This document shows positions 692-64,000 of a stretch of DNA of 64,000 bases, one piece after another. This stretch comes from Gigantopelta aegis (lineage: Eukaryota > Mollusca > Gastropoda > Neomphalida > Peltospiridae), in NCBI RefSeq assembly GCF_016097555.1, contig NC_054703.1, positions 38,746,169 to 38,810,168 on the forward strand. The letters are read 5' to 3'. Made by a program: the position numbers and the translations under genes. The notes below the pieces were generated by a model. It was not told the DNA's origin and did no database searches. It saw only the letters and a list, made by a program, of their open reading frames with translations. How positions within the stretch are numbered: position 1 is the first letter of the stretch; each line of letters starts with the position of its first letter.

Positions 692-1956
692 ATGGCTCTA
701 AATGAAACAGCTGGTACTTTTGATGAAATTGAAGATATAGAATCTATCTTTAACTCGACTAATACAAGCACAGGAATAAACGCTGCAGCAGGAAATCCCT
801 GGATTTACTTCCGAAGTCCAAATACTGCCTTTTTGGTCAGCGAGTTTATTATCGTCATAGTAGGACTAGCGGGGAACTATTTAGTGTTTGTTTTACTGAG
901 AGACGTCAAGTTTTCCTTGCTATCCTACCAAATATATATGAGATTTCTGGCAGTGTCGGATAGTTCTGTTTTAATTACATATGGCATACACCAGTCTCTG
1001 AGATACTTTCACATGTTTCATGTTATCAGGAATCATGACTCTGTCTGTGGTTTATGGATGTTTATGAGGAGGACAGTGATGATCCTATCCCCATGGTTGT
1101 GGTTGGACTGACGGTGGATCGGTTCTACTGCGTTGTTTTCCCGCTGAAACGCGACAGATTCTGCACTCGAAGAAAGGCCGCGATCGTCTGCTCGTGTCTG
1201 ACTACTTTGTCAGGTGTGCTGACGCTCCCGCTAGTGCTTGACGTGAAGAAAGTAAAAGGCATAAACACACAATGCTATGTGAAAGATCAATATATGGGCT
1301 ATTATTATTTCGTACGTCTAGTTCTCACCTCAACCCTCCCCTGCCTCTTGATTCTCATCTTCAACATTGTGATTGGTATCCACATCCAGCGCAGCGCCAC
1401 GTTTCAGAAGAGATTCACCTCGTCGAACAACTCTGCCAACACTGATACGAAGCTGGACAAGTCGTTTCGTCCTCTTATGCTCATCTCCATTTTGGCTTTC
1501 GTAACAATTGTTCCTTTGGCTATCACGGACTGTATCCTTGCGATCCTGTTGGTAACTAAATCGCATTTTGAAACCGTAGGGATCCTGGTCAAACTGTGGC
1601 CAATATTCAACATTGTATACCTGATCAATTTTGGACAGAATCTGTACATCCTGATGGCCAGTTCAGCTAACTACAGGAAGATCATGAACACAAAGCTGAC
1701 GTGCAGGGGAAGGAAATCCTCCAGACAGAAAGACAAGGTCACAGTGTCACGATTTCCATGGCAGGTTTCTGAACCCACCAATTTCGGGACAGATGGATCA
1801 GAATCCGCAACCAGACTGTCGTTTGCAACCAACATCACGTTAGTTAACAGAGCCACCAATTTCGGAACAGATGAATCGGAATCCGGAACCAGACTGTCTT
1901 TTGCAACCAGCATCACGTCAGTTAACTCTCCTGTCAAGGATTCCGAAGATCGTTAA
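692..1956 (+). pseudogene. class A (rhodopsin-like) GPCR, copy 1, frameshifted
   Basis: An orphan seven-helix receptor by family resemblance; the ligand is unknown, and a peptide or chemosensory role is only a guess. The start at MALNETAG follows a TTTGCAG splice acceptor and is shared with copies 3 and 4. The first frame (692-1111) carries TM1 with the GN motif, TM2 and the TM3 cysteine. The second frame (from about 1100 to 1956) carries DRF, TM4 to TM7 and NFGQN. The frames are joined by loss of one G near 1098, in the codons for the end of TM3 (SPWLVVG in the intact relatives). All other landmarks are kept, so inactivation is recent or is an assembly indel. The C-terminal tail holds a 26-residue tandem duplication. 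Confidence 0.85.
1774..1929 (+). repeat. 78-bp tandem duplication in the GPCR tail
   Basis: Two copies (1774-1851 and 1852-1929) each encode a 26-residue unit beginning TNFGTD and containing SES-TRLSFAT. The third receptor has one such unit. The duplication is in frame. Confidence 0.85.
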
Positions 1957-18352: not shown

Positions 18353-18389
18353 AGATGTCAGACAACAAACACAAATGCTAATATTGTCC

Positions 18390-18410
18390 TTGATTCTGCT
18401 TTTTTGGCAG
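18390..18410 (+). promoter_or_regulatory. probable 3' splice site of GPCR copy 2
   Basis: A polypyrimidine tract with TTTTTTGGCAG ends at 18410. The related genes have TTTGCAG at the equivalent place, so the in-frame ATG at 18375 is intronic and ATG 18417 is the start. Confidence 0.7.
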
Positions 18411-18416
18411 GTTACG

Positions 18417-19583
18417 ATGTTCAACATTACCGGACCCTCTATGCCTGGAGAAAACAATGACGTGGACGGGCTCCTTAGAGGGGCGAATTTCAACACGAAC
18501 TACAACGGAACAGATCACAATTCCATCCACAATAGAGGCTACGCCTACTGGTTCTTCAACGTCATTACTGTTGCTATAGGACTGGTGGGAAATGTCATGA
18601 TTGTTCCTTTAATGGGGGACGTGAAATTATCCTTCCTGTCGTACCCGGTGTACTTGGGATGTCTGGCTTTTTTGGACAGTTCAGTGCTCATTATTTTCGA
18701 CATAAAGGAATCGTTCATATATTTCCAGTCCTCCTACCTTATTGAGAGTAATTTGGCCGTCTGTACGCTAACGAAATTCATACAATACGTGGCGACGACT
18801 CTTTCTCCTTGGTTGATGGTTGGACTGACTCTGGATCGCTTCGTCTGTGTTGTTTTCCCGCTGAAACGCGACGGACTCTGCACTCGAAGAAAGGCTACGA
18901 TCGTCTGCTCGTGTCTGACCGCTGTGTCCGTAGTTATGACTCTCCCACTGTTGAATGGGCTGGAGAAAGTTGAAGGGTCAGAGATATGTTTTATAAAAAA
19001 TTACTTAGTGAGGTACGCGACATTTGTACGTATTGTTTTCAACGCTAACCTTCCTTGTCTGTTGATTCTCGTCCTCAACACTGTGATTGGAATCCACATC
19101 CAGCGCAGCGTCACGTTCAGAAAGAGATTTACATCCACCTCCACCAGCTCTGGCGCCACTGAAAACACGCTGGACAAGTCAGTTTTTCCTCTCATGTTGA
19201 TCTCGATATTGGCTTTCGTAACTCTCATACCTTCATCCATTGCAGACAGCATTGTTTTGATCCTATATATTACTAAATCGGATCCTGAAACTCTGGCCTT
19301 CATCCTCTTCAAACTGTGGCCGGTGCTTAATATTTTATACCTTATGAATTTTGGTCAGAATTTCTACATCCTAATGGTCAGTTCAGCTAACTATAGAAAA
19401 ATTATAAAGGCGAAACTGAAATGCCAGAACCTCTGTGGACGGAATGACGATGTTACAGTGTCACGAGCTCTTGCTCAGGTTTCAGACTGTGTCGACGTCA
19501 GGACAACTATGACAGAATTGAACACTATACAACCTGTACCACCCAGCTCGGTTGCCTCCGCTACTCTAGAATTTGGTAACTGA
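18417..19583 (+). CDS. class A (rhodopsin-like) GPCR, copy 2, intact
   Basis: A 388-residue seven-helix plasma-membrane receptor, orphan by inspection. The N-terminus has NIT and NGT glycosylation sites. TM1 carries GN (residue 59), and C116 at TM3 pairs in principle with C191 in the second outer loop. DRF (140-142) replaces DRY. TM7 ends NFGQN (311-315) instead of NPxxY. The third inner loop is about 20 residues, rich in Ser/Thr. The start MFNITGP was chosen because the earlier in-frame Met at 18375 lies before a splice acceptor that is conserved in position among the four copies. It is more diverged than copies 1, 3 and 4 are from each other. A neuropeptide or chemosensory role is possible but not shown. 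Confidence 0.88.
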   Translation: MFNITGPSMPGENNDVDGLLRGANFNTNYNGTDHNSIHNRGYAYWFFNVITVAIGLVGNVMIVPLMGDVKLSFLSYPVYLGCLAFLDSSVLIIFDIKESFIYFQSSYLIESNLAVCTLTKFIQYVATTLSPWLMVGLTLDRFVCVVFPLKRDGLCTRRKATIVCSCLTAVSVVMTLPLLNGLEKVEGSEICFIKNYLVRYATFVRIVFNANLPCLLILVLNTVIGIHIQRSVTFRKRFTSTSTSSGATENTLDKSVFPLMLISILAFVTLIPSSIADSIVLILYITKSDPETLAFILFKLWPVLNILYLMNFGQNFYILMVSSANYRKIIKAKLKCQNLCGRNDDVTVSRALAQVSDCVDVRTTMTELNTIQPVPPSSVASATLEFGN

Positions 19584-25329: not shown

Positions 25330-26240
25330 AACGGCAGTTAAATGATGGTTTTCTAAGAAGGATACAAACTATTTGTGTGAAAATGGATCTAATATATCCA
25401 TAATGCCTTCTACAAAACATTCTAGGTCATACGACCTTCACACAAAAACATGGGGCAAAAGTATCAAGTCTTGTGCATTTGGAAATTACCATTCGGCACA
25501 TTCACTGAGAAAGTTACTTCATGGATATCCAATAGCATTGAACATATCCAAGATGTTACGAATATTCGGTGACCAATCCATTATTTAACTACTATAAGTA
25601 TGTTCAGCTGTATAGACCCAAAGTTCTGTTTTGTAAATGTTACGTTTAATTCCTATTCAGTACTTGTTTTCTTTACATACACGTGAAAACAAACCCAAAC
25701 CCCGACATATTTCCATTTTACAACCCGCCTCCCCCAAAAAAAAAACAACAAAAAACAACAACAACACCAACAACACAAAAACAAAACAAAAACAACAACA
25801 AACAAACCCAAACAAACAACAACAACAAAACAACAAACAACAAACAAAACACAAACACAAAACCCCCACCAATAACAAACACATAGAGAGAGTTTTGCAA
25901 AATGGAAATAAGTCCACTACGTGCATTTTAGATATGCATGTGTATATAATACCTGTCGGTGTTTGGGTTTGTTTTCATGCAAATGTAAAGAAAACAAGGG
26001 TTGAATAGGACTTGAACGTAACATTTGCAAAAAACAACAACAACATAGTATTTACTTCTTCGCAAATAAGATATTGGTCGTTAAAGAAACACTTACGACT
26101 ACCACTTGCTTTGTGGAACGTACGACAACCATAAACCTCACCGTAAGTCACCACAATTAACTTTACCTACAATTCGTTCGTGGAACGGGGCCCTGGTCTT
26201 TTTCTAAAAATAGGTTTTGCCATTCTTGTTCCATTGTTCT
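25330..26240 (-). repeat. dispersed repeat Q, copy 2, with a foldback insertion
   Basis: In reverse this matches 7380-7860 in order, including the ACCAGGGCCCCGTTCCACG block near 26190-26210 and AACAATGGAACAAGAATGGC. The match is interrupted by the inverted-repeat element at 25631-26022. Confidence 0.6.
25631..26022. mobile_element. foldback/MITE element with roughly 85-bp terminal inverted repeats
   Basis: The left arm has AAATGTTACGTTTAATTCCT, TTGTTTTCTTTACAT and GAAAACAAACCCAAACCCCG. The right arm gives the same blocks in reverse (AAATGTTACGTTCAAGTCCT, AAACACCG). The middle (25735-25885) is an A/C-only low-complexity tract rich in CAA. Confidence 0.8.
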
Positions 26241-26439: not shown

Positions 26440-26640
26440 CAGGACTGGTATATCAAATACCGTGGAATGTGCTATCTTTTCTACGGGATGGTTGATTATA
26501 TATATCCCTTGCTACTAATGGAAAACATATAGCGAGTTTCCTCTGTAATACTGTATTTAAAATTACTAAATGTTTGGCATCCAATAGCCGATAATTAATT
26601 AATCAATGTACTCTAGATGTGTCAATCGAAACAAACTACT
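26440..26640 (+). repeat. SINE, family A, head-truncated
   Basis: Starts in the GGACTGGTATATCAAATACC block and runs to the tail CATCCAATAGCCGATAATTA and GTGTCAATCGAAACAAACTA. Confidence 0.75.
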
Positions 26641-27198
26641 TTATTGATATTATACATGTCCTCAAATGTTTTAGAAATATAGAAACGAAACGTAAATCTT
26701 AAAGACAAAATGGCTTGTAATGATCAAATTGTATCTCTGCACATTGCAGTCTAATGGACGTTTAACAAACAGTGCTGGGTTCAATAAACCTCTGTCGTGT
26801 GTCTCGCCTCCATTGGGACAGCCAACCTCGAGGAGATGATTTATTGTTAGTGGTGTAACAATACATTGAACTATCGATATGTTGCGACAGTCAGTGCCTA
26901 GATAGCAATGCGACGATAGTTAATTCAACTGTCGATAACTATTGCAATTATTTGCTCAACTATCGATAGTTTCGATAGTATGCATAGTGAAATATGGTCT
27001 ACGACCAACGCATAATGTCACTATCTAGTAACATTATTACAAATAACTAAGTGCAAATACAGACACACATACACACACAAAAACACGTACATACGCATAC
27101 ATACTCAAACAAACGCATGCCTACCTACCTACATACCTACCTACATAATACATACTTACCTGCCTACCTACATAATATATACTCCCTTTTTTTCGTCT

Positions 27199-27470
27199 TT
27201 TTTAACGACATTACTGGAGGATATTGATTAATTAATCATCGGCTATTGGATGCCAAACATTTGTCAACTCCGACACATAGTCATCAGAGGAAACCCGGCA
27301 CATTGTCCCAACGCCGCAAGGTATCCCCCATATTCACCACCATCCCATAGACTTTGATATACCAGTCGTGGTGTACCGGCTGGAACGAGAAATAGCCTAA
27401 TGGGCCCACCAACGGGGATCGATTCCAAACCGATCACGCGAGCGCTTTACCACTGGGCTACGTCCCACCC
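27199..27470 (-). repeat. SINE, family A, full length
   Basis: The tail at the left is TTTTAACGACATTACTGGAG. The head in reverse is GGGACGTAGCCCAGTGGTAA. The box-B-like region is GGGATCGATTCC. Confidence 0.85.
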
Positions 27471-29350: not shown

Positions 29351-29358
29351 GGAATTTA

Positions 29359-29430
<72 letters not shown>
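29359..29430. repeat. (TA)n microsatellite
   Basis: Two TA runs split by one AA step. Confidence 0.98.
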
Positions 29431-29433
<3 letters not shown>

Positions 29434-29517
29434 CACTGATGGTTATCATTAAAGGCTTGAAAGGTGCTCAATACTTTAAGAGAGAGTAGAGCATGCAATA
29501 AATATATATTTGATGTC

Positions 29518-30702
29518 ACAATGGGCAGTTACGACGGTTCTGAAGTGTGCGAACTTGTTGGCCTTCTAATTCTAGTAACGATACGAAAAACAATCAACAA
29601 CGCAAATACCGGTCTATATAGAGACGACGGACTCGTAGTACTCAGAAACTGCTCAGGAAGCCAAGCAGACAGAACAAGAAAAATACTCATACAAATTTTC
29701 GAACAATTTGGCCTCAAAATAACAACACAAACCAATCTAAAATGTGTCAACTTCCTCGACGTCACACTAAACTTACATACAGGAAAATACAAACCTTACA
29801 GAAAACCCAACAACGAACCGGTGTACATAAATATACACTCAAACCACCCACCCAGCATTATAAAACAGATACCCGCATCAATCAGCAAGCGAATCTCAAT
29901 GCTATCATCCAACGAAGAAGATTTCACGGAAGCCGCACCCACGTACGACAAAGCACTAAAGGAAAGCAACTACACAGAACGCATACTATACACACAAACA
30001 GGAATCCACACAACACAAAACAAAACAAGAAAGAACAGAAGCAGGAAAATCATATGGTTCAACCCACCATACAACAAAGCTGTGAAAACAAACATCGGAC
30101 AATTATTCATAAAATTAATATCCAAACATTTCCCCTCCACACACAAATACCACAAAATATTCAACAAAAATAACGTCAAAATCAGCTACAGTTGCATGAA
30201 AAACATCGGCACATTAATCAAAAACCACAACTTTAAAATTATTAAAGATCCAGTCAGCGTAACACCAAAAGAAAATTGCAACTGCAGAAATAAAGAAAAC
30301 TGCCCACTCAACGGACAATGCCAAGCAAGTTCGATAGTATACAAAGCAAGCGTAACAACTGGCGCAACGTCAAAAACATACATCGGTCTATCTGGCGGTA
30401 ATTTCAAACAACGATACAACAATCACACGAAATCGTTCAAACAAGAAAAATACTCGAAAGAAACCGAGCTATCTAAACATGTCTGGGAACTAAAAAAACA
30501 GCGAACAAATTATGAAATAAGCTGGCAAATTATCAAACAGTCGAACACGCACAAACGAAACTCCGGCCAATGTAACCTGTGCATTGAGGAAAAGCTCGCC
30601 ATCCTACAAACAAAAGACAAAAACAATCTCAACAAAAGGACTGAGCTCATCTCAAAATGCCGTCACACCAGTAAGCTCAAACCACGCAACCGTACTACAT
30701 AA
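29518..30702 (+). CDS. PLE polyprotein fragment: RT C-terminus plus GIY-YIG endonuclease
   Basis: An open frame of about 395 residues starting at the conserved TMGSYDGSEVCELVG. The frame stays open slightly upstream to an ATG at 29464, but that part is not PLE-like. Numbered from that ATG, YRDD (52-55) is the RT motif C, then the thumb region (NFLDVT near 97) and IWFNPPY (197-203). A C-x-C-x5-C-x5-C cluster (272-286) precedes the nuclease, which shows the paired Y/YIG strands (293 and 306-308), R317 and a conserved E335. A second pair of cysteines is at 370-373. No internal stop, so the fragment is young. On its own it cannot reverse transcribe because the first RT motifs are missing. Confidence 0.85.
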   Translation, partial: TMGSYDGSEVCELVGLLILVTIRKTINNANTGLYRDDGLVVLRNCSGSQADRTRKILIQIFEQFGLKITTQTNLKCVNFLDVTLNLHTGKYKPYRKPNNEPVYINIHSNHPPSIIKQIPASISKRISMLSSNEEDFTEAAPTYDKALKESNYTERILYTQTGIHTTQNKTRKNRSRKIIWFNPPYNKAVKTNIGQLFIKLISKHFPSTHKYHKIFNKNNVKISYSCMKNIGTLIKNHNFKIIKDPVSVTPKENCNCRNKENCPLNGQCQASSIVYKASVTTGATSKTYIGLSGGNFKQRYNNHTKSFKQEKYSKETELSKHVWELKKQRTNYEISWQIIKQSNTHKRNSGQCNLCIEEKLAILQTKDKNNLNKRTELISKCRHTSKLKPRNRTT

Positions 30703-30736
30703 AAATAAAAACCCTGCAATCTTTTCACCAGTGTCA

Positions 30737-30780
30737 GCTATCTGAAGATCGTCGAAGGGCGTGAAACTCGGAGTAATAGC
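30737..30780 (+). ncRNA. hammerhead ribozyme motif in the PLE 3' UTR
   Basis: The core strands CTGAAGA (30742-30748) and GAAA (30763-30766) fit the CUGANGA/GAAA consensus. Stem I is GCTAT (30737-30741) pairing with ATAGC (30776-30780). Stem II is CGTC pairing with GGCG (30750-30753 with 30758-30761) around a GAAG loop, with a T-T mismatch next to the core. Stem III is ACTC pairing with GAGT (30766-30769 with 30771-30774). The cleavage site would follow GTA at 30775. Hammerheads are known in PLEs; this copy's fold is read directly from the sequence, its activity is not known. Confidence 0.75.
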
Positions 30781-30800
30781 GTAGGACAAAAGTGCAATAT

Positions 30801-30801
30801 A

Positions 30802-30865
<64 letters not shown>
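30801..30865. repeat. (TA)n microsatellite
   Basis: Begins directly after the PLE 3' UTR. Confidence 0.98.
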
Positions 30866-35029: not shown

Positions 35030-36523
35030 CTCTTCAAAAAAAGAAACGCAAAAGGGTACAAATGGGTTATAACTCCGATTTTATGTTTCCTACCGGTTCA
35101 TGCTTTGTGAATATAAGGTCATTGCATGTCCCAAACACATTCCCACGGTTACATTCGATAAAACGCAGCTACTGTACAATAAAGTTCCAAAATGTGAATA
35201 TTCGCAAAAACGCAGCCACGTGCAAACCATGTCACCACTGCACGTGCGTTGTCTGCACGTGCAACATGAACACCGACAGTATAAAAGTGCAGGGTGTTCG
35301 CTTGCCTGGCCTCTGTATCTGGCCGACAGTTGACAATCCAGGACATGCCACGTCTCAGTGAACCGCAGAGAAACAATGCCATCGGCCGACTAGACGCAGG
35401 CGAATCCAGAACGGCCGTTGCCAGGGCATTCCATGTGTCCCCAAGCACCATCTCCAGACTGTGGGACCGTTACCAGCAACATGGATCAACACGTGACCTC
35501 CCTAGAAGCGGTTGACCACGGGTCACTACCCCCGGGCAGGACCGCTACATCCGGGTACGCCACCTTCGGGAACGATTGACTACTGCCACCTCCACAGCCG
35601 CAGCAATACCAGGTTTGCGCAGGATATCCGACCAGACCGTACGGAACCGCCTACGTGAGGTAGGAATTCGTGCCAGACGTCCAGTTCGAGGTGTCATCTT
35701 AACATCACAACACCGTCGACTCCGACTGCAGTGGTGCCAGATTCATCGACAATGGCCTCAACTGCGATGGAGACAGGTGTGGTTCAGTGACGAGTCCCGA
35801 TTTCTGCTCCGACGTCATGATGGAAGATGTCGCGTGTATAGGCGTCGTGGTGAACGTTATGCGGCAAACTGCGTGCAGGAAGTGGACAGATTCGGCGGGG
35901 GGTAGTGTCATGGTGTGGGCAGCCATCTCACACACTGGCAGAACTGACCTGGTCCACGTGCAGGGCAACCTGAATGCACAGGGCTACATTGACCAGATCC
36001 TCCGGCCACACATCGTTCCAGTTATGGCCAACGCCAACGCAGTGTTCCAACATGACAACGCCAGGCCTCACACAGCACGTCTCACAACGGCTTTCCTACA
36101 GAACAACAACATTAATGTCCTTCCTTGGCCATCGATATCACCGGATTTGAACCCAATTGAGCATCTATGGGACGAGTTGGACCGACGCCTCCGACAGCGA
36201 CAACCACAGCCCCAGACCTTGCCCGAGCTGGCAGCAGCCTTGCAGGCCGAGTGGGCCACCATCCCCCGGGACGTCATCCGTACTCTGGTTGCTTCAATGG
36301 GCAGGCGCTGCCAGGCAGTTGTCAACACACGCGGAGGCCACACCCGGTATTGACTCCAGATGACCTTGACCTTGGTGGTGTGTCCTATCACTTACTCACA
36401 ATGGACTAGAGTGAATTGTGAACAATCCTGCAACATTTGGTAATTATCGGACTCACCATTCAATAATGAAATCAATTCTCCAAATGTTACGACAATGTGG
36501 TTTTGCGTTTCTTCTTTTGAAGA

Positions 36524-46483: not shown

Positions 46484-47728
46484 TTAACGTTTTTGGTTAG
46501 TTTGTGTCTTGATATGTTTTGAACGATCTTCAGAATCTTTAGCAGGAAAGGTAACTGATGTGATGGACATCTCAATATACTGTCTGGTTCCGGATTCTGA
46601 TCCATCCATTCTGAGATCAGCGGATTCAGAAACCTGCCATGGAAATCGTGACACTGTGACCTTGTCTTTCAGTCTGGAGGATTTCCTGCCCCTGCACGTC
46701 AGCTTTGTCTTCATGATCTTCCTGTAGTTAGCTGAACTGGCCATCAGGATGTACAGATTCTGTCCAAAATTGATCAGGTATACAATGTTGAAAATTTCCC
46801 ACATTTTGACTAGAATCACTACGGTTTGAAAACCTGATTCAGTTATTAACAGGAACCTAAGAATGCATTCTACGACAGTTAAAGGGACAATTGTGACGAA
46901 AGCCAAAATGGAGATGAGCATAAGAGGACGAAGCGACTTGTCCAGCTTCGTCTCTGTGTTGGCAGAGTTGTTCGACGAGGCAAATCTCTTTCGGAACGTG
47001 CTGCTGCGCTGGATGTGGATTCCAATCACAATGTTGAAGATGAGAATCAACAGGCAGGGAAGGGTTGAGGTGAGAACTAGGCGTACGAAATAATAATAGG
47101 CCATATATTCATCTTTCACATAGCATTGTGTGTTTAAGCCTTTTATTTTCTTCAAGTCAAGCACTAGCGGGAACGTCAGCACACCTGACAATGTAGCCAG
47201 ACACGAGCAGACGATCGTGGCGTTTCTTCGTGTGCAGAATCTGTCTCGTTTCAGCGGAAAAACAACACAGAAGAACCGATCCACCATCTATCCAACCACC
47301 AACCACGGGGATAGGAGCACCACTGAGTACCTCATGCACATCCATAAACTACAGACAAAGGCATGGTTCGAGATAATATGAAACACGTGAATGTATCTCA
47401 GCAACAGGAGGATGCAATGTATAATTACAACAGAACTGTCTGACACTGCCAGAAATTTCAAATATATTGGGTAGAATAGCAAGGAAAACTTGATGTCTCT
47501 CAGTAAAATAAGCACCAACAAGTTCCCCACTAGTCCTACTAAGCCGATAATGAAGTTGCTGACCACAAAGGCAGTCTTTGAACTTCGGAAGAAAACCCAG
47601 GCATTTCCTGCTGTAGCTTTTATTCCTGTGCTTGTATTCGTCGAGTTAAAGAGAGAGTCCGTATCTTCAATTTCATCAAACGTACCAGTTGTTTCATTTA
47701 GAGCCATAGTGTTTATGTTTGACATCAT
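46484..47728 (-). pseudogene. class A (rhodopsin-like) GPCR, copy 3, one nonsense codon
   Basis: Same receptor as copy 1, in an inverted duplication. The frame is continuous from 47728 to 46484 except for one TAG at 47288-47290, where relatives have CTG in VVGLTVDRF. It lies at the end of TM3 directly before the G-protein-coupling DRF. Upstream are TM1 with GN, TM2 and the TM3 cysteine; downstream are TM4-TM7, NFGQN and a tail with one SES unit. An extra in-frame ATG pair (MMSNINT) precedes the family start MALNET at 47707 and lies inside the exon, so either could start translation. As written the product would be about 147 residues. Confidence 0.88.
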
Positions 47729-57269: not shown

Positions 57270-58761
57270 TCTTCAAAAAAAGAAACGCAAAAGGGTACAA
57301 ATGGGTTATAACTCCGATTTTATGTTTCCTACCGGTTCATGCTTTGTGAATATAAGGTCATTGCATGTCCCAAACACATTCCCACGGTTACATTCGATAA
57401 AACGCAGCTACTGTACAATAAAGTTCCAAAATGTGAATATTCGCAAAAACGCAGCCACGTGCAAACCATGTCACCACTGCACGTGCGTTGTCTGCACGTG
57501 CAACATGAACACCGACAGTATAAAAGTGCAGGGTGTTCGCTTGCCTGGCCTCTGTATCTGGCCGACAGTTGACAATCCAGGACATGCCACGTCTCAGTGA
57601 ACCGCAGAGAAACAATGCCATCGGCCGACTAGACGCAGGCGAATCCAGAACGGCCGTTACCAGGGCATTCCATGTGTCCCCAAGCACCATCTCCAGACTG
57701 TGGGACCGTTACCAGCAACATGGATCAACACGTGACCTCCCTAGATCCGGTCGACCACGGGTCACTACCCCCGGGCAGGACCGCTACATCCGGGTACGCC
57801 ACCTTCGGGAACGATTGACTACTGCCACCTCCACAGCCGCAGCAATACCAGGTTTGCGCAGGATATCCGACCAGACCGTACGGAACCGCCTACGTGAGGT
57901 AGGAATTCGTGCCAGACGTCCAGTTCGAGGTGTCATCTTAACACCACAACACCGTCAACTCCGACTGCAGTGGTGCCAGATTCATCGACAATGGCCTCAA
58001 CTGCGATGGAGACGGGTGTGGTTCAGTGACGAGTCCCGATTTCTGCTCCGACGTCATGATGGAAGATGTCGCGTGTATAGGCTTCGTGGTGAACGTTATG
58101 CGGCAAACTGCGTGCAGGAAGTGGACAGATTCGGCGGGGGTAGTGTCATGGTGTGGGCAGCCATCTCACACACTGGCAGAACTGACCTGGTCCACGTGCA
58201 GGGCAACCTGAATGCACAGGGCTACATTGACCAGATCCTCCGGCCACACATCGTTCCAGTTATGGCCAACGCCAACGCAGTGTTTCAACATGACAACGCC
58301 AGGCCTCACACAGCACGTCTCACAACGGCTTTCCTACAGAACAACAACATTAATGTCCTTCCTTGGCCATCGACATCACCGGATTTGAACCCAATTGAGC
58401 ATCTATGGGACGATTTGGACCGACGCCTCCGAAAGCGACAACCACAGCCCCAGACCCTGCCCGAGCTGGCAGCAGCCTTGCAGGCCGAGTGGGCCACCAT
58501 CCCCCGGGACGTCATCCGTACTCTGGTTGCTTCAATGGGCAGGCGGTGCCAGGCAGTTGTCAACACACGCGGAGGCCACACCCGGTATTGACTCCAGATG
58601 ACCTTGACCTTGGTGGTGTGTCCTATCACTTACTCACAATGGACTAGAGTGAATTGTGAACAATCCTGCAACATTTGGTAATTATCGGACTCACCATTCA
58701 ATAATTAAATCAATTCTCCAAATGTTACGACAATGTGGTTTTGCGTTTCTTCTTTTGAAGA

Positions 58762-59794: not shown

Positions 59795-61260
59795 TGAACA
59801 CAATAAGAAACTTCCGCTAACTTTGCATCGTTTGCTGCAAAAATCATGGCCATAGGTTAACAGAAACTGGGAGAAATTTTGACCAAGTGTGGTAGGGGTT
59901 AAAATAAAAAAAAACCCACTTAATAACGGGTATGACCACCTCTTGAATTGACCACTGCAGTGCATCGCAAGCGCATAGAATTGACTAAAGTGTTGATTTC
60001 TGCCTGTGGAATATTGTTCCATTCCCGAATGAGCGCTTGACGAAGTTCATTGACGTTAGCGGGTGGGTTGGGACGACGCCGCAATCGTCTGTCCAGACTA
60101 TCCCAGACATGCTCGATGGGGTTGAGATCAGGACTTTTAGCGGGCCAGTCATCAATGAAATCAATATTATTTGTCCTAAGACAATTTACAGTCTTTCTAG
60201 CTGCATGAGAGGTGGCATTATCATGCTGAAAAATCGAAATGTTGGCGTTGCTATGGAACAGAGTAATGACGTGATGAGCGAGAATGTCATCGCGGTAACG
60301 TTGAGCATATAAATTGCCATCAATGACGACTAGTCGTGAACGATAACCATGGACAATGGCTGCCCAGACCATGACAGAACCCCCACCCCCGAAACGATCT
60401 CGTTCAAGAACACAACAGTCAGCATAGCGTTCATTTCTCCTACGGTAGACGCGCACCCTGCCATCACCACGTTGTAAAGAAAATCTGGATTCATCCGAAA
60501 AAAGAAAGGTATTCCAGCGTCGCCGTATCCAACGAGTGTATACACCCTCCCAATTAAGACGATTTAGACGATGACGTTGCGTTAAAACGCATCCGACGTA
60601 AGGACGTCGTGCATGTAAACCATTCTCCCGCAGGTGATTACGAACAGTTTGCCCACTGATTCGATTATTATGAAGCCCAGGTGTGTTAGCATAAGTAGCA
60701 GTGGCAGTTTGGAATCGATTGCGCAAATGCGTGTTCATGATATCGCGGTCTTGACCACGCATTGTAACACGCGGACGTCCACGACGTGGCAAGTCGTTGG
60801 TGCTTCCTATCGTTCGAAATCTTACGCGAAGATTTCGTATCGCTCGACTAGAACTCCCAACATGCCTTGCAACGTCTTCTGTCGACATGTCAGCATCAAG
60901 CATGCCAATGGCCCGTTCGCGTAAATTATTGGGTATTCTTGGCATACTAAAATTGCTACAATGTAAAAAACGTTAATCTTTTTTACAAATTTTGAAGCGT
61001 TTTCGTTCACTTGACAACAATGTCAGTAAGAGAAGTAAAACAAATTGACCGAATACTACACGGGACATGTCGAACCATGCATGCACGTGCAAATTGAATT
61101 TCACGTTGTCGACGATTAACAGTGCATAAATAATCGATAACATTCATGAATCCTGATAACACAGCTCAAGACTAATACCTCCTATATAATTGCATTACAC
61201 AATGATTTATTTAACACAACAAATACTATATGTACAAATCGAAAGGTGTTTTTTTGTATA
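59794..61260 (-). mobile_element. second Tc1 family, transposase open, one end unclear
   Basis: The end at 59794 (CTGAACACAATAAGAAACTT) follows TA in a TA run, as expected. The other end should lie near 61260 before TATATATATA, but I cannot match a clean inverted repeat there, so that terminus is diverged or lost. Confidence 0.75.
59920..60945 (-). CDS. Tc1 family transposase (DD35E), intact
   Basis: 341 residues, starting MPRIPNNLRERAIG. Helix-turn-helix with TEDVARHVGSSSRAIRNLRV, linker RRGRPRVT, catalytic D in FLFSDESRF, D in FQHDNATSHAA, E in NPIEHVWD (35 residues between the last two), ending NSRGGHTRY like the other family. The usual DNARPH is changed to DNATSH, and it has one more G in FGGGGSVMVWAA than the first family. 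No internal stop. The two Tc1 families share the overall plan and the C-terminal GGHTRY, so they are related but clearly distinct. Confidence 0.92.
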   Translation of the reverse strand: MPRIPNNLRERAIGMLDADMSTEDVARHVGSSSRAIRNLRVRFRTIGSTNDLPRRGRPRVTMRGQDRDIMNTHLRNRFQTATATYANTPGLHNNRISGQTVRNHLRENGLHARRPYVGCVLTQRHRLNRLNWEGVYTRWIRRRWNTFLFSDESRFSLQRGDGRVRVYRRRNERYADCCVLERDRFGGGGSVMVWAAIVHGYRSRLVVIDGNLYAQRYRDDILAHHVITLFHSNANISIFQHDNATSHAARKTVNCLRTNNIDFIDDWPAKSPDLNPIEHVWDSLDRRLRRRPNPPANVNELRQALIREWNNIPQAEINTLVNSMRLRCTAVVNSRGGHTRY

Positions 61261-62925: not shown

Positions 62926-63969
62926 TCAGGAATCAACAGAGGCAGCAGGTTGCCATGGAAATCGCGACACTGTTACATTGTCGTTCAGTCTGGAGGAGTT
63001 CCCGCCCCTGCACGTCAGCTTTGTCTTCATGATCTTCCTGTAGTTAGCTGAACTGGCCATCAGGATGTACAGATTCTGTCCAAAATTGATCAGGTATAAA
63101 ATGTAGAACATTGGCCACAGTTTAGTGAGGATCGCTACGGTTTGAAATCCTGATTCATTTACTATCAGGAACCCAAGAATGCACTCTATTATAGCTAATG
63201 GGACCATTGTTACGAAAGCCAAAATGGAGATGAGCATAAGAGGACGAATTGACTTGTCCAGCTTCGACTCAGTGTTGGCAGTGCTGGTCGATGAGGTGAA
63301 TCTCTTTCGGAACGTGGCGCTCCGCTGGATGTGGAATCCAATCACAATGTTGAAGATGAGAATCAAGAGGCAGGGAAGGGTTGAACTGAGAACCAGACGT
63401 ACGAAATAAAAGTAGGTTATATGTTGATTTTTAAAAAAGCATGCTGTTGTTAATCCCTTTACTTTCATTGGGTCAAGCACTAACGGTATCGTCAGCACCC
63501 CTGACAAGGTAGCCAGACACCAGCAGACGATCGTGGCCTTTCTTTTAGTGCACAATCTGTCACGTTTCATTGGGAAAACAACACAGTAGAACCGATCCAC
63601 AGTCAGTCCCACGACCAGCCACGGGGATAGGAGCATAGATGAGTAACTGATGAACATCCATAAACTACAGACATAGTTCGAGATAATATGAAACACGTGA
63701 AAGTATCTCAGCGACTGGAGTATGCCATACGCAATTAAAACAGCACTGTCCGACAGCGCCATAAATCTCAAATACATTGGGTAGGATAGGAAGGAAAACT
63801 TGACGTCTCTCAGTAAAACAAACACCAAGACGTTTCCACCTAGTCCTGCTATGATGGTAATCAAGTTGCTGATCCAGAAGGGAGCGGTTGGTCTTATGAA
63901 GTAAATCCAGCCATTTCCTGCTGTAGCGTTTATTCCTGTGTTTGTACCAGCTGTTCCATTTAGAGCCAT
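62926..63969 (-). CDS. class A (rhodopsin-like) GPCR, copy 4, intact with shortened tail
   Basis: 347 residues. Start MALNGT (63969) was chosen because the frame further upstream runs through the splice acceptor TTTGCAG. N-glycosylation sites NGT and NAT precede TM1 (31-53, GN at 45-46). C101 and C177 would form the conserved disulfide. DRF at 125-127, TM6 with P257, and NFGQNLY at 295-301. It lacks about 17 residues of the N-terminal stretch seen in copies 1 and 3. A TGA after AASVDS ends the protein, although the sequence beyond still encodes the family tail in frame, so the tail was lost by a stop. Orphan receptor; ligand unknown. Confidence 0.88.
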   Translation of the reverse strand: MALNGTAGTNTGINATAGNGWIYFIRPTAPFWISNLITIIAGLGGNVLVFVLLRDVKFSFLSYPMYLRFMALSDSAVLIAYGILQSLRYFHVFHIISNYVCSLWMFISYSSMLLSPWLVVGLTVDRFYCVVFPMKRDRLCTKRKATIVCWCLATLSGVLTIPLVLDPMKVKGLTTACFFKNQHITYFYFVRLVLSSTLPCLLILIFNIVIGFHIQRSATFRKRFTSSTSTANTESKLDKSIRPLMLISILAFVTMVPLAIIECILGFLIVNESGFQTVAILTKLWPMFYILYLINFGQNLYILMASSANYRKIMKTKLTCRGGNSSRLNDNVTVSRFPWQPAASVDS

Positions 63970-63986
63970 AGTGCCTATGTTTCCAC

Positions 63987-64000
63987 CTGCAAACAAATAA
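63987..64000 (-). promoter_or_regulatory. 3' splice site of GPCR copy 4
   Basis: Reads in reverse TTATTTGTTTGCAG, identical in layout to copies 1 and 3. The upstream exon lies beyond the window. Confidence 0.7.

What the first reader, a model, noticed from the sequence alone, without database searches (positions are those of the whole stretch)
30737..30780. Complete hammerhead ribozyme fold at the 3' end of a Penelope-like element
All three stems and both core strands can be drawn: GCTAT/ATAGC, CGTC/GGCG with a GAAG loop, ACTC/GAGT, cores CTGAAGA and GAAA, cleavage after GTA. It has unusual details: A at the variable core position, a T-T mismatch beside the core in stem II, and a one-base loop in stem III. 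Hammerheads are known in PLEs, so the presence is expected, but the exact variant may be new.
Basis: partly seen in the sequence, partly recalled or inferred. Interest (0 to 1): 0.75.

Follow-up and report, generated by a model that had tools for sequence, protein, structure and literature searches.

The report
Dimer-type hammerhead in snail retrotransposon
Next to a broken copy of a Penelope-like jumping gene in a deep-sea snail sits a short motif with the form of an RNA-cutting hammerhead ribozyme, of a kind already known from such jumping genes; it looks real, and its odd details have been described before.

Summary
A general type I hammerhead descriptor finds it once in the window; 400 shuffles gave 1 loose match and 0 at its stem lengths. 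It begins 34 nt after the stop of a 5'-truncated Penelope-like element (PLE) ORF; the fold models support a telomerase-like RT and a GIY-YIG endonuclease. A relative, tandem PLEs on a Solemya symbiont scaffold (evidently host DNA, L002), has a 44-nt hammerhead between its two ORFs: 8 of 12 shared pairs change on both sides, 4 are unchanged, 0 break, with the same U-U mismatch in stem II and the same stem III layout. Rfam finds the relative (RF00163, below gathering, E 0.0006) but not the window motif. The 'one-base loop' is better read as a self-complementary segment for a double hammerhead, as published for PLEs. The U-U mismatch, the free core position and palindromic short stems III are each in print. 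New member of a known kind. Copies in the same genome could not be examined (genome search did not complete). Activity is untested.

The parts
30737..30780 (+). Type I hammerhead motif, 44 nt: stem I 5' strand, CUGAAGA, U.U, stem II (CGUC-GAAG-GGCG), GAA, ACUC-G-GAGU, A, stem I 3' strand
   Evidence: covariation with L002 1250-1293; cmsearch with the L002-derived model lists it first in the window, narrowly (16.1 bits, E 0.012; next 15.6 bits)
30766..30774 (+). Stem III segment ACUCGGAGU, self-complementary apart from the central G; predicted to pair with the same segment of a second hammerhead
   Evidence: self duplex of 8 pairs at -9.7 kcal/mol (L002's 9-mer -13.0); about 2% of random 9-mers have this symmetry
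30775..30776 (+). Predicted cleavage site, after A (H17) of GUA
   Evidence: position in the motif; RUH site rule from PMC7936874 passages; activity untested
29464..30702 (+). Open frame of the 5'-truncated PLE: end of RT (YRDDG box), following region, GIY-YIG endonuclease; homology begins at 29497-29509 depending on the query
30703..30795 (+). 3' untranslated end of the element holding the hammerhead; inferred element end at 30795
   Evidence: no second copy in the window by short-word blastn; boundary inferred from the candidate target-site duplication
29501..29511 (+). Candidate target-site duplication, upstream copy (AATATATATTT); its last letters overlap the start of the coding homology
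   Evidence: identical to 30796-30806; low complexity, so weak
30796..30806 (+). Candidate target-site duplication, downstream copy, at the edge of an (AT)n array 30797-30864

Best explanation
It is the hammerhead ribozyme that PLEs carry in their terminal repeat (pseudo-LTR), left at the 3' end of a 5'-truncated copy in the genome of the vent snail Gigantopelta aegis. Proposed mechanism (inferred): in RNA from tandem PLE copies, two such motifs pair through their self-complementary stem III segments (4+4 pairs around a G.G) into a double hammerhead; each then cuts after the GUA (30775), trimming a multimer into unit-length RNA. No second motif was found in this window, so here it is most likely a remnant that could cut at best poorly or in trans. 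Shown here: the motif, the element, and in a relative the tandem arrangement and the covariation. Inferred: dimer folding, cleavage, role.
For: Motif and chance level. Relative L002 with ORF - hammerhead - ORF in tandem and 8 of 12 pairs changed on both sides, 0 broken, U.U kept. The L002 motif is a full-length RF00163 hit on a short stretch (22.5 bits, E 0.0006); in that alignment the RF00163 consensus has a stem III of 4 pairs with no loop positions. A model from L002 alone lists the window motif first of 12 matches in 64 kb (E 0.012); the sequence-only model does not list it among 9. L001, another PLE relative, carries CTGACGA-GTGC-GTAA-GCAC-GAAACTC beyond its ORF, cut by the contig end (RF00008 18 bits, E 0.053). 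RT and GIY-YIG folds. Dimer mechanism in PLEs from the literature.
Against: No Rfam hammerhead hit for the window motif at any setting tried, and none for whole L001 and L002 at E<=5. With the L002 model a place in a GPCR gene, 47179-47235, scores practically the same (15.6 bits, E 0.016) through a shared stem I sequence without the CUGANGA core; the L002 model does not find the cut-off L001 motif at E<=10. Monomer folding does not favour the hammerhead in window or L002. L001 has the usual G-C at the base of stem II, so the U.U is not general in this group of PLEs. Only one complete relative. No copy from the same genome was seen.
Confidence: 0.87

Rival explanations
1. Chance resemblance: an ordinary 3' UTR that happens to spell a hammerhead.
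For: No Rfam hit; folding energy not unusual; core letters alone are common.
Against: 1 loose and 0 matching-length hits in 400 shuffled windows; 0 of 120 viral loci picked for the variant core pattern satisfy the stems; a covarying counterpart between the tandem PLE ORFs of L002.
Confidence: 0.03
2. A decayed hammerhead: the A at position 7, the U.U mismatch and the weak stem III are damage in a dead, truncated copy.
For: The copy is 5'-truncated; L001 has the canonical G-C at 10.1-11.1; Rfam misses the window motif but finds the L002 motif.
Against: L002 shares the U.U mismatch and the stem III layout while its stem sequences differ; position 7 is free by consensus; the frame stays open over 412 codons.
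Confidence: 0.15
3. The motif acts as a structural 3' signal (RT start or binding fold) and not mainly as a cutter.
For: In the Anolis PLE, hammerhead mutants still insert normally in vitro, no RNA ends were seen at the cut site, and cleavage needed the protein (PMC11167929 passages). In Terminons the hammerhead is described as a 3'-terminal fold (PMC6431247 passages). Here the inferred element end is 15 nt after the motif.
Against: Both core strands and an RUH site (GUA/GUU) are kept in window and L002, which a mere structure would not need.
Confidence: 0.2

Closest known systems
[quoted passage not shown] Lunse et al. 2017; neither held, known here only through passages of citing papers)
   Same: Type I layout, very short or absent stem III, self-complementary stem III for dimers, place in PLE terminal repeats
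   Different: U.U at the base of stem II, A at position 7, A at the cut site; the first two are in print for hammerheads elsewhere; the combination was not seen in the passages read
Rfam RF00163 Hammerhead_1
   Same: The L002 relative matches the full model; consensus stem III is 4 pairs without loop positions
   Different: L002 is below gathering score; the window motif is not reported at all
HHR_Amex2 of axolotl retrozymes (PMC7229834 passages)
   Same: U.U mismatch at the base of stem II, short stem III
   Different: Non-autonomous tandem repeats, not a PLE; stem III of two pairs with a tetraloop
PAc, the PLE of Anolis (PMC11167929 passages)
   Same: RT + GIY-YIG ORF with a hammerhead near the pLTR/ORF junction
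   Different: There the ORF starts at stem II of the motif; in L002 142 nt lie between the motif and the next ATG

Membership tests
Type I hammerhead ribozyme | Core CUGANGA ... GAAA with A15.1-U16.1 and an NUH cut site | tested here: met
   CUGAAGA, GAAA, A-U, GUA
Type I hammerhead ribozyme | Three stems in type I order, kept by compensatory change | tested here: met
   8 of 12 pairs double-changed, 4 unchanged, 0 broken between window and L002; two sequences only
Type I hammerhead ribozyme | Covariance-model recognition (a detection threshold, not a definition) | tested here: inconclusive
   Window: no Rfam hit. L002: RF00163 E 0.0006, below gathering. Model from L002 lists the window motif first at E 0.012, with an unrelated place next at 0.016
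Type I hammerhead ribozyme | G10.1-C11.1 pair (usual, not defining) | tested here: not met
   U.U in window and L002; documented natural exception (PMC3088659 section 8)
Type I hammerhead ribozyme | Self-cleavage | not testable with these tools
   needs a transcript assay
Penelope-like element | Telomerase-like reverse transcriptase | tested here: met
   Model of relative P0024 (pLDDT 90): first Foldseek match is TERT 3du5, E 2.6e-8; by VIA-align other RT groups score as high or higher. The window copy keeps only the end of the RT
Penelope-like element | GIY-YIG endonuclease | tested here: met
Penelope-like element | Tandem copies with pseudo-LTRs | tested here: inconclusive
   Tandem in L002; the window copy is single and truncated, its 3' end occurs once in the window
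Penelope-like element | Short target-site duplication | tested here: inconclusive
   11-bp AATATATATTT on both sides, but AT-repeat sequence

The most novel reading that the evidence does not exclude
A PLE lineage of molluscs (snail and, presumably, Solemya host) has fixed a hammerhead form that combines the U10.1.U11.1 mismatch with a stem III that exists only as an intermolecular 8-pair duplex around a G.G, so that it is switched on only in tandem (multimeric) RNA and escapes standard annotation.
Probability: 0.3. Interest if true: 0.4.

Novelty: new member of a known kind. Interest (0 to 1): 0.25.

Why it matters
It adds a gastropod example with a covarying counterpart to the PLE hammerheads, and shows two such motifs that fall below Rfam's threshold, so this kind may be under-annotated. 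[quoted passage not shown] an element with a dimer-type stem III is a usable test case, but not a surprise to a specialist.

Tried and rejected
PLE relatives in viral contigs: none with the window protein or two alignments. tblastn in phages and plasmids: none. Rfam on whole L001 and L002 at E<=5 found nothing; only short stretches gave the L002 and L001 hits. MAFFT misaligned the two motifs, so pairs were counted on segments cut by hand-set lengths. Pfam found no RT and only a weak GIY-YIG hit; 6 of 22 members matched the Dam methyltransferase model (best E 0.00046), which I take as spurious and did not pursue. Profile search of PDB sequences found nothing at E<=1. Papers: Cervera 2014 and Lunse 2017 are not held. 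A library search for hammerhead ribozyme, U-U mismatch, stem II, 10.1-11.1 (at least 3 of 4) returned one paper, PMC3088659. Naming the PLE clade (recalled candidates: Hydra or Neptune type) was dropped for lack of reference sequences.

Full report
What is there. With the stems, a general descriptor hits once in 64 kb, against 1 hit in 400 shuffled windows for the loose form and 0 for the stem lengths seen. A scan allowing one core mismatch found no second copy in the window.

Relatives with DNA. One scan of genome contigs gave 2 loci, both evidently animal DNA in symbiont or metagenome assemblies (inference). L002 (Solemya elarraichensis gill symbiont record) holds the end of one PLE ORF (stop ending at 1129), a 44-nt motif at 1250-1293, and the start of a second ORF in the same direction with its ATG at 1436. 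The motif has core CUGACGA, U.U at the base of stem II, stem III ACGG-G-CCGU and cut site GUU. Between window and L002, 13 pairing positions can be compared: 8 pairs differ on both sides and still pair, 4 are the same, 0 are broken, and the U.U is the same in both. L001 (bin 'Cli_8'; a sponge source is my guess from the code) has two head-to-head PLE copies, one of them truncated; beyond the ORF of the other lies CTGACGAGTGCGTAAGCACGAAACTC, cut off by the contig end, with the usual G-C at the base of stem II.

Independent models. Rfam reports RF00163 for L002 over the whole model, 22.5 bits, E 0.0006, gathering 34, and RF00008 weakly for L001, E 0.053; on the whole loci it reports nothing at E<=5. 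A covariance model made from L002 alone lists the window motif first in 64 kb, 16.1 bits, E 0.012, practically tied with 47179-47235 at 15.6 bits, which shares L002's stem I letters but lacks the CUGANGA core. The same model without structure does not list the window motif among its 9 matches. So what links the two motifs is largely structure. The model does not find the cut-off L001 motif.

How it probably works. A one-base loop is not possible in a hairpin, and the monomer hammerhead is predicted 5.6 kcal/mol less stable than the best fold (-4.3 vs -9.9; L002 -7.2 vs -12.7). The stem III segment is self-complementary around a central G in both, with self duplexes of -9.7 and -13.0 kcal/mol; about 2% of random 9-mers would be so. 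The energy of a whole double hammerhead was not computed. Passages of reviews state that PLE hammerheads act as dimers in tandem copies and that palindromic stem III sequences are needed (PMC6466107; PMC7761336). L002 shows the tandem arrangement of the element. I therefore read the motif as half of a double hammerhead. In this window there is only one, so the local copy is probably idle. The direct repeat AATATATATTT at 29501-29511 and 30796-30806 would put the element's end 15 nt past the motif, but it is AT-rich and next to (AT)n arrays.

What is known. U10.1-U11.1 mismatches in natural hammerheads, and their tolerance, are stated in PMC3088659 section 8 (read), and for axolotl HHR_Amex2 (PMC7229834 passages). 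CUGAnGA leaves position 7 free (PMC10085705 passages). Weak palindromic stems III are in PMC3088659 (passages). The combination in one PLE motif was not seen in the passages read; the two key PLE papers were not held, so no claim of novelty is made. A paper on gastropod non-LTR elements says that gastropod PLEs lack detailed characterisation (PMC11203168 passages).

Limits. Two complete motifs are few. The own-genome check failed 17 times for technical reasons. Cleavage is not shown.

Noticed in passing
window 35787-36353, 57533-58591, 59920-60945 (-): Three transposase ORFs: all match Pfam DDE_3, and the last two also HTH_Tnp_Tc3_2, so Tc1/mariner type; the first two share long stretches (by eye).
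   Followed up: partly
window 1054-1956, 18375-19583, 46484-47287 (-), 62926-63996 (-): Related GPCR genes: three match Pfam 7tm_1 and the fourth (18375) falls in a large Gigantopelta aegis receptor family.
   Followed up: partly
window 26568-27262: Inverted repeat arms of 56 nt, 88% complementary, 583 nt apart: could be a MITE-type element.
   Followed up: no
window 25623-26038: Inverted repeat arms of 85 nt, 85% complementary, 246 nt apart.
   Followed up: no
window 29357-29430 and 30797-30864: (TA)n arrays on both sides of the truncated PLE; possible preference of the element for TA repeats, or coincidence.
   Followed up: partly
L001 1-3787: Head-to-head PLE copies, one truncated within the coding region, on a contig filed as bacterial: evidently animal DNA in a metagenome bin.
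   Followed up: partly
L002 2810-6109 (-): Beyond the truncated second PLE ORF, an open frame of 1099 residues on the opposite strand that reads by eye like a LINE-type RT with RNase H.
   Followed up: no
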